NCBI GenBank assembly: GCA_023250205.1 | Contig: JAHFBE010000005.1 | Coordinates: 16,376-50,249 of the forward strand | DNA length: 33,874 bases | Source: Candidatus Melainabacteria bacterium | Lineage (GTDB): Bacteria; Cyanobacteriota; Vampirovibrionia; 2-02-FULL-35-15 | Direction of reading: 5' to 3' | In this document: positions 18,318 to 19,235 of the stretch, in pieces | How the letters are laid out: each line of letters starts with the position of its first letter | Position numbering within the stretch: position 1 is the stretch's first letter | Translations under genes and position numbers: made by a program | The notes under the pieces: generated by a model | Seen by the model: only the letters and a program-made list of their open reading frames with translations | Told to the model about the DNA's origin: nothing | Database searches by the model: none

Positions 18318-19235
18318 ATGATCTGGGTTTATCCGCCAAATAATTGGGTTTCAAATTACAACGAAACGTTTGTATATGGGTGGTGTGAGCCAAAGGCAAA
18401 ATTATTTGTTGAGGCAGGTTTCCCGCCAGAGGTGGGTCCGCCTTCGGCGGAAAAACCTGCCTGTACCAAACCGATACCTGTACGAATCTTCCCAAATGGA
18501 AATTTTGCACAATCCATTAAATTGCCGGATAAAAAAAATATTGTTAGTTTAATACAAATTTTAAATGGAAAGAAGAAAGTAGTTTCTAGGAATGTCATTG
18601 CGGATACAAATGTAGGGATTTACCACGGTAAATCCCTGAAATCGAAAAAAACAAAAAAAGAAATTGTAGGGGCAGAACAACATGTCTGCCCATTACGAGT
18701 TATCATTATTGATCCCGGTCATGGTGGAAAAGAACACGGCACTCATTCTCCAAAAGGAATCCCGGAAAAAGTTTTTAATTTAGAGATTGCAAAATTGTTA
18801 TTCAACAAATTGCGTAGACGCGTTGCATCCAACGCGTCTACGGTACAAATTTATCTAACACGTACAAATGATAAAGATATTTCATTAAAACAAAGAATTG
18901 ATTTTGCAAAGAAGAAAAAGTGTAATTTATTTATTTCTATTCATCACAATGCTCTTCCTGATAATGAGAATCCTCTAAAACACAGGGGTGTGGGTGTTTA
19001 TTATACGCATGATTTTGTAAAACCTCTTGCCAAAAACTTTTTGGATTCTATTTCCAGAGAGGCAAAAATGAAAAAATATGGAATATTTAAAAGAGATTTT
19101 GCTGTAACAAGACCAGACTTTTACACGGGCATTTTAATAGAATGTGGGTTTTTAATTCACCCTGAAGAGGGGGAGTATGTTATTAAAAAAGCTATTCAAG
19201 AAAAAATTGTTAGAGGAATTATAAAAAGTTTGTAA
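18318..19235 (+). CDS. N-acetylmuramoyl-L-alanine amidase (Amidase_3) with N-terminal domain
   Basis: 'VIIIDPGHGGKEHGTHSPKGIPEKVFNLEIAK', 'YLTRTND', 'FISIHHNALP', 'GILIECGFLIHPEEG'. AGGAGG at 18301-18306 supports the start MIWVYPPNN at 18318; ORF is open from 18243. Confidence 0.92.
   Translation: MIWVYPPNNWVSNYNETFVYGWCEPKAKLFVEAGFPPEVGPPSAEKPACTKPIPVRIFPNGNFAQSIKLPDKKNIVSLIQILNGKKKVVSRNVIADTNVGIYHGKSLKSKKTKKEIVGAEQHVCPLRVIIIDPGHGGKEHGTHSPKGIPEKVFNLEIAKLLFNKLRRRVASNASTVQIYLTRTNDKDISLKQRIDFAKKKKCNLFISIHHNALPDNENPLKHRGVGVYYTHDFVKPLAKNFLDSISREAKMKKYGIFKRDFAVTRPDFYTGILIECGFLIHPEEGEYVIKKAIQEKIVRGIIKSL
18412..18462. repeat. Palindromic element A inside the amidase CDS
   Basis: AGGCAGGTTT...AAACCTGCCT outer 10-bp stem enclosing two hairpins, CCCGCC-AGA-GGTGGG and TCCGCC-TTC-GGCGGA (three-way junction). 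51 bp = 17 codons. Confidence 0.88.
18614..18637. repeat. Palindromic element B inside the amidase CDS
   Basis: AGGGATTTACC-AC-GGTAAATCCCT: perfect 11-bp stem. Confidence 0.8.
18666..18696. repeat. Palindromic element C inside the amidase CDS
   Basis: GTAGGGGCAGA-acaacatg-TCTGCCCattac: 7-bp core stem GGGCAGA/TCTGCCC. Confidence 0.65.
18813..18842. repeat. Palindromic element D inside the amidase CDS
   Basis: CGTAGACGCGTTG-CATC-CAACGCGTCTACG: perfect 13-bp stem, 4-nt loop; encodes RRRVASNAST. Confidence 0.9.

What the first reader, a model, noticed from the sequence alone, without database searches (positions are those of the whole stretch)
18318..18846. Four different palindromic elements embedded in-frame in one amidase gene
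Seen: A (18412-18462, three-way junction, 17 codons), B (18614-18637, 11-bp stem), C (18666-18696) and D (18813-18842, perfect 13-bp stem) all lie in the amidase ORF without breaking it. D sits between 'LLFNKL' and 'VQIYLTRTND', inside the catalytic domain, where related amidases have a short helix-strand loop. C abuts the catalytic-domain start 'VIIIDPGHGG'. Knowledge: in-frame palindromic insertions are documented in Rickettsia (RPE). Four sequence-distinct types in one gene suggests a tolerant linker and active repeat spread.
Basis: partly seen in the sequence, partly recalled or inferred. Interest (0 to 1): 0.82.

Follow-up and report, generated by a model that had tools for sequence, protein, structure and literature searches.

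The report
Mobile DNA hairpins translated inside genes
Short mobile DNA hairpins have repeatedly settled, in reading frame, inside the same loops of a cell-wall enzyme and of many core enzymes in a family of non-photosynthetic relatives of cyanobacteria, so their proteins contain translated pieces of a selfish DNA repeat.

Summary
The palindromes are real, and the in-frame-repeat reading holds, with corrections. A-D are four variants of one superfamily, GTAG-tagged REPs (A has GTTG and a filled loop). Close copies of A, C and D, and a diverged copy of B, lie elsewhere in the genome. Of seven other close A/C/D copies, five are in-frame inside genes (threonine-dehydratase-like, ThiE, hydrolase, and two in the genome's only Y1/RAYT transposase). 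Orthologous amidases in the same family carry different palindromes at the same three sites, plus a fourth. REP-free family members lack them. Core dN/dS is about 0.13. The habit is family-wide: of 56 copies of one REP type sampled in relatives, 29 are internal and in-frame, 10 near gene ends, 17 intergenic. In cyanobacteria the same REP is mostly intergenic (28 of 38). In HisH the gain is exactly 30 nt. Elsewhere it is smaller (+1 to +7 aa), so native codons were lost. At a PrpB site six genomes carry palindromes whose arms changed together. Most likely these are RAYT-mobilised REPs whose roughly 30-bp unit keeps frame, filtered for tolerated sites. Intragenic GTAG REPs are known (PMC3733652). 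New here are the density, same-site turnover and RAYT genes hosting REPs. RAYT mobilisation and the cause of turnover are inferred.

The parts
18318..19235 (+). N-acetylmuramoyl-L-alanine amidase gene (ORF open from 18243; probable start ATG 18318)
   Evidence: core dN/dS 0.13-0.15
18702..19229 (+). Amidase_3 catalytic domain (PF01520)
   Evidence: residues 154-329, E 1.5e-38; solved relatives such as CwlV 1jwq; H160, E175, H234, E300 invariant in 69 homologues
18408..18466 (+). Element A at site S1: GTTGAGGCAGGTTT...AAACCTGCCTGTAC, a GTAG-like REP with two inner hairpins
   Evidence: second copy at G000 C6:2419, in-frame antisense in a hydrolase
18612..18639 (+). Element B at site S2: GTAGGGATTTACCACGGTAAATCCCTGA
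   Evidence: diverged relative GTAGAGATTTGCCATGGCAAGTCTCTAC in PanE (L070:7655)
18666..18696 (+). Element C at site S2: GTAGGGGCAGAACAACATGTCTGCCCATTAC
   Evidence: four further matches in the genome, two of them inside the RAYT gene
18813..18842 (+). Element D at site S3: C-GTAGACGCGTTGCATCCAACGCGTCTAC-G, perfect 13-bp stem
   Evidence: two further copies, in-frame in a threonine-dehydratase-like gene and ThiE
18255..18317 (+). Further dispersed repeat (E) just upstream of, and open in frame with, the probable start; not a simple palindrome
   Evidence: residues 1-27 of the long ORF match many places in G001 and G004, most with stops

Best explanation
A-D are GTAG-tagged REP palindromes, non-autonomous mobile hairpins of the kind handled by RAYT (TnpA-REP) single-strand transposases, that settled in-frame in the amidase. 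Shown: copies elsewhere in the genome; different palindromes at the same coding sites in orthologues; REP-free orthologues; a host gene under purifying selection; a RAYT gene that itself hosts C-type REPs. Inferred: a RAYT spreads the hairpin. Its unit is about 30 bp, a multiple of three, and only one of the three frames reads the TAG of the tag as a stop, so many insertions keep the frame and add about ten codons. Selection keeps those in loops and helix ends. Native codons next to the element are lost with or after insertion, so most occupied proteins grow by less than ten residues. Over time one palindrome at a site gives way to another.
For: Genome copies of A, C and D, five of seven in-frame in genes. 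Same-site, different-palindrome orthologues of the amidase and of PrpB, ThiE, PanE, HemD, QueA, CCA and FTHF ligase. 39 of 56 family copies of one REP type inside or at the ends of genes. HisH +30 nt exactly. The six family genomes with a Y1 transposase hit all have the REP (5-22 copies); of the five without, three have none. RAYT genes host GTAG palindromes in one loop. Core dN/dS 0.13-0.15. GTAG as recognition motif of TnpA-REP and as tag of the superfamily: PMC8266576, PMC3733652.
Against: No transposition was observed and no target duplication was found. G003 and G006 have REPs (3 and 12 copies) but no detectable RAYT. B has no close copy and A lacks the exact tag. Net gain is often far below 30 nt (FAD oxidoreductase +1 aa), which clean insertion alone does not explain. 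Site S2 of relatives also carries palindromes without GTAG, so other sources of palindromes exist.
Confidence: 0.72

Rival explanations
1. Old insertions kept palindromic without new insertion: each site was hit once, and coordinated changes in both arms (quasi-palindrome correction during replication, or conversion among copies) keep the hairpin while its letters drift.
For: At the PrpB site six genomes keep a palindrome, 84.7% of cells paired, 7 of 12 pairs changed on both sides; the ROK site behaves likewise; G000/G001/G003 versions at PrpB look like partly decayed relatives of one type.
Against: In the amidase, well-supported close pairs carry wholly different element classes at one site (P0006/P0021), and HisH sites range from empty to a GTAG REP to a 36-aa element of another kind.
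Confidence: 0.15
2. The palindromes are kept because the hairpin does something in DNA or mRNA (transcript stability, pausing, gyrase or nuclease site), and translation is incidental.
For: Strong predicted hairpins on the coding strand (A -36.5, D -22.5 with RNA parameters); paired changes.
Against: REP-free orthologues exist in sister lineages; the sites lie at varied positions in unrelated enzymes; paired changes are also expected from replacement.
Confidence: 0.08
3. Chance or low-complexity linker sequence, a decaying pseudogene, or an assembly artefact.
For: The linker before the catalytic domain is poorly structured and hypervariable (pLDDT 54-66 over residues 121-150).
Against: Synonymous shuffles give 0.01 such hairpins against 2 observed. 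Copies occur elsewhere. Core dN/dS about 0.13-0.15. Catalytic residues invariant. Orthologues from independent assemblies show the same pattern.
Confidence: 0.02

Closest known systems
GTAG-tagged REP superfamily (Di Nocera et al. 2013, PMC3733652)
   Same: 20-40-bp palindromes with a GTAG tag; families reported in Cyanobacteria; several types per genome; some inside genes and translated; two different recB REPs at about the same site in two Xanthomonas species.
   Different: There most REPs are extragenic. In this family about half of the sampled copies of one type are internal and in-frame, orthologues share occupied sites across genera in several genes, and different palindromes fill one site.
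Rickettsia palindromic elements (RPE)
   Same: Palindromic repeats translated in-frame inside unrelated, apparently functional proteins.
   Different: Different host, longer elements (about 150 bp as summarised in PMC10969869; the RPE-4/6 types are CGTC-tagged per PMC3733652); here 28-31-bp GTAG units (A 59 bp).
RAYT / TnpA-REP REPtrons
   Same: Single-domain Y1 (HUH) transposase associated with GTAG hairpins; binding and cleavage of REPs studied for E. coli, Stenotrophomonas and Marinomonas enzymes (PMC8266576).
   Different: Known REPtrons have REPs flanking the gene. Here the REP sits inside the transposase reading frame, in a loop between the HUH strand and the following helix.

Membership tests
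GTAG REP superfamily (PMC3733652) | GTAG tetranucleotide at one end of the hairpin | tested here: met
   Met by B, C and D; A has GTTG, one mismatch
GTAG REP superfamily (PMC3733652) | Stem 5-13 bp, loop 2-20 nt | tested here: inconclusive
   B, C and D fit; A's loop is longer and folded
GTAG REP superfamily (PMC3733652) | Repeated in the genome | tested here: inconclusive
   Met for A, C and D at low copy; B has only a diverged relative; the related GTAGRGRC... core has 3-22 matches at up to 2 mismatches in eight family genomes
GTAG REP superfamily (PMC3733652) | Association with a tyrosine (Y1) transposase gene | tested here: met
   The only Y1_Tnp gene found in G000 holds two C-type matches
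GTAG REP superfamily (PMC3733652) | Mobilised by a RAYT | not testable with these tools
   Needs biochemistry or population data
Rickettsia palindromic elements | In-frame insertion in ORFs that encode functional proteins | tested here: met
Rickettsia palindromic elements | Sequence of an RPE family, Rickettsia host | tested here: not met
   Nearest named relatives are Melainabacteria/Caenarcanales; elements are GTAG-tagged; RPE sequences themselves were not compared
RAYT (the transposase at G000 C29) | Y1_Tnp domain with HUH motif | tested here: met
   PF01797 over cut-off; HFH motif; nearest homologues include proteins named 'REP element-mobilizing transposase RayT'

The most novel reading that the evidence does not exclude
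In this family REPs act as a continuing source of protein sequence: a roughly 30-bp, frame-keeping mobile hairpin that enters core enzymes at a limited set of tolerated sites, is repeatedly exchanged there for other palindromes, and is carried inside the reading frame of its own transposase, so that homologous coding sites stay palindromic for long evolutionary times while their letters change.
Probability: 0.3. Interest if true: 0.82.

Novelty: new variant of a known kind. Interest (0 to 1): 0.62.

Why it matters
Translated palindromes are mainly known from Rickettsia and scattered REPs. A bacterial family in which selfish hairpins sit in many core enzymes, at shared sites and with REP-free sister lineages, gives natural before/after pairs. 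They allow direct tests of how proteins tolerate ten-codon insertions, how REPs move, and why palindromes persist in coding DNA.

Tried and rejected
Chance and low-complexity reading: rejected by synonymous shuffles and genome copies. Known RNA family: no Rfam match in the window at gathering, nor in 18150-18900 at E up to 0.5. A pattern search for an ATTCATGAAT-centred REP class was mis-specified (26 nt instead of 28) and its zero result is not evidence; that used the last genome search. The 118 of 120 RAYT homologues with a matching loop peptide is biased, because the query contained that peptide and candidates were chosen by shared words. The tree of amidase cores is weakly supported, so change counts are only indicative.

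Full report
What is there. The window lies in a 2.08-Mb draft genome (83 contigs, 86.5% complete). The nearest named relatives of the amidase are Candidatus Melainabacteria / Caenarcanales genomes. The ORF 18243-19235 encodes an Amidase_3 protein. Orthologues begin near 'M..LIWVYPP', so ATG 18318 is the probable start. Elements A-D are present as described and exceed what synonymous recoding of the same protein gives. B, C and D start with GTAG and A with GTTG. A is best read as a GTAGAGGCAGGTTT-type REP with two extra hairpins in its loop (inference from the peptide match with relatives).

They are repeats. D has two further copies (GTAGATGCGTTGCATGCAACGCATCTAC), in-frame in a threonine-dehydratase-like gene and in ThiE. 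A has one, in-frame on the opposite strand of a hydrolase-like gene. C has four further matches, two of them inside the single Y1/RAYT transposase gene found in the genome and two intergenic. B has no close copy but has a diverged relative in-frame in a PanE-like gene.

The same sites are used by other palindromes in relatives. Homologues of the amidase from the family vary at three positions, LFVS|IKIFPNGNFA (S1), SRNVI|VIVIDPGHGG (S2) and LLFKKL|YLTR (S3), and some at a fourth, ISKE|LKKYG (S4). DNA from relatives shows palindromes there. G002: CCGTAGAGATGTTACGCGCAACGTCTCTACGG (S1), GTAGGGGCGTTGCATGCAACGCCCCTAC (S2), GGGCGTTTCACGAAACGCCC (S3). G003: GTAGAGACGTCACATGCAACGTCTCTAC (S1) and a GAAGCAATCTC-type hairpin (S2). 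G005: GAGACTTGCGGCCGCAAGTCTC (S3). G009: TGTAAGGGCACGCCATGGCACGCCCTTACA (S4). G004, G007 and G010 have none at S1-S3 at the threshold used. On a tree of the core, element class (assigned by peptide) changes at least 20, 26, 18 and 6 times at S1-S4 over 53 rows, but the tree is weakly supported.

The gene looks functional: core dN/dS is about 0.13-0.15 against two same-genus genomes (dS about 1), and H160, E175, H234 and E300 are invariant in 69 homologues. The model (mean pLDDT 87.8) places A, B and C in lower-confidence loops and D at the end of helix 175-196 before strand 202-205. With dS about 1, a perfect 13-bp palindrome such as D would hardly survive neutrally since the split from G002, so it is recent or maintained (inference).

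The habit is family-wide. The core GTAGRGRCGTTGCATGCAACGYCYCTAC (up to 2 mismatches) occurs 3-22 times in eight genomes of the family, not in G004, G007, G010 or the ten other-family genomes of the same class, and never for the reversed control. It also occurs in cyanobacteria. Of 56 copies examined in the family, 29 are internal and in-frame, 10 near gene ends and 17 intergenic (approximate gene calls). Hosts include HisH, PrpB-like, FAD oxidoreductase, HemD/CobA, QueA, CCA transferase, 5-formyl-THF ligase, RecN, homoserine dehydrogenase, AnmK and MqnC (gene names are my reading of the sequences, except ThiE and the dehydratase, which were matched to solved structures). In 38 cyanobacterial copies, 28 are intergenic and 10 internal, six of those in one genome. 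These copies are the first listed ones, not a random sample.

Insertion or replacement. HisH in the window's genome is exactly 30 nt longer at the REP than in G002 and G003, fitting a 30-bp unit TGTAG...CTACA. Elsewhere the gain is smaller: FAD oxidoreductase +1 aa, ThiE +2, PrpB +3, ROK +1 to +4, threonine-dehydratase-like +5, amidase S3 about +6 and S4 +5 to +7. So native codons have been lost, either with or after insertion; I cannot tell which.

Turnover with kept palindromes. At one PrpB site six genomes carry palindromes of different sequence and G004 carries none. 84.7% of cells pair, and 7 of 12 pairs have changes on both sides, against 28-58% paired when slid. A ROK site behaves likewise. 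Only six and four sequences are involved, and the register was taken from one of them. This can come from repeated insertion, REP-for-REP exchange, conversion, or quasi-palindrome correction.

The transposase hosts the repeat. In G000, G001 (two genes), G008 and G009 the RAYT reading frame contains a GTAG palindrome in the loop between the HUH strand and the following helix. Many database homologues carry related peptides there, but that sample is biased towards such peptides. I found no mention of this in the titles, abstracts and passages returned by the paper searches, which cover a limited library.

Known background. GTAG REPs, their link to RAYTs, and intragenic translated copies are described in PMC3733652. 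TnpA-REP recognition and cleavage of REPs is described in PMC8266576. RPEs are summarised in PMC10969869. The finding is therefore a new and unusually rich variant of a known kind. What is shown is repeat identity, frame, distribution and same-site variation. What is inferred is RAYT mobilisation, trimming by selection and the cause of turnover.

Noticed in passing
window 18255-18317; copies in G001 and G004, L178:1499: A further dispersed repeat (core AAGCCCGACAAGCGAAGAATGAGCGAGGAGGGCGG) lies just upstream of the amidase start, open in its frame; the metagenome homologue P0002 carries the same N-terminal peptide, while most other copies contain stops.
   Followed up: partly
L013:1132-1716; L078, L084, L079, L086: RAYT/Y1 transposase genes of this family carry a GTAG palindrome in-frame inside their own coding sequence, always in the same loop.
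   Followed up: partly
window 2169-2233 and 8405-8450; about 14 similar places in G000: An intergenic repeat containing GAGACGTTGCATGCAACGTCTC without the GTAG tag, next to GCAATCCCGATC-type arms, recurs in the genome as GTGGAGACGTTGCATGCAACGTCTCTTC.
   Followed up: no
amidase site S2 in L024, L019, L021; HisH in L177; L125: Other in-frame palindromic elements without GTAG: a GAAGCAATCTC...GAGATTGCTTCG type and, in L125 and upstream in L016, a GGGAATCC...GGATTCCC (LDSRFRGND) type.
   Followed up: partly
cyanobacterial genome G242, loci L225-L230: All six listed copies of the REP in this 7.4-Mb cyanobacterium are in-frame inside genes, unlike the other cyanobacteria sampled.
   Followed up: no
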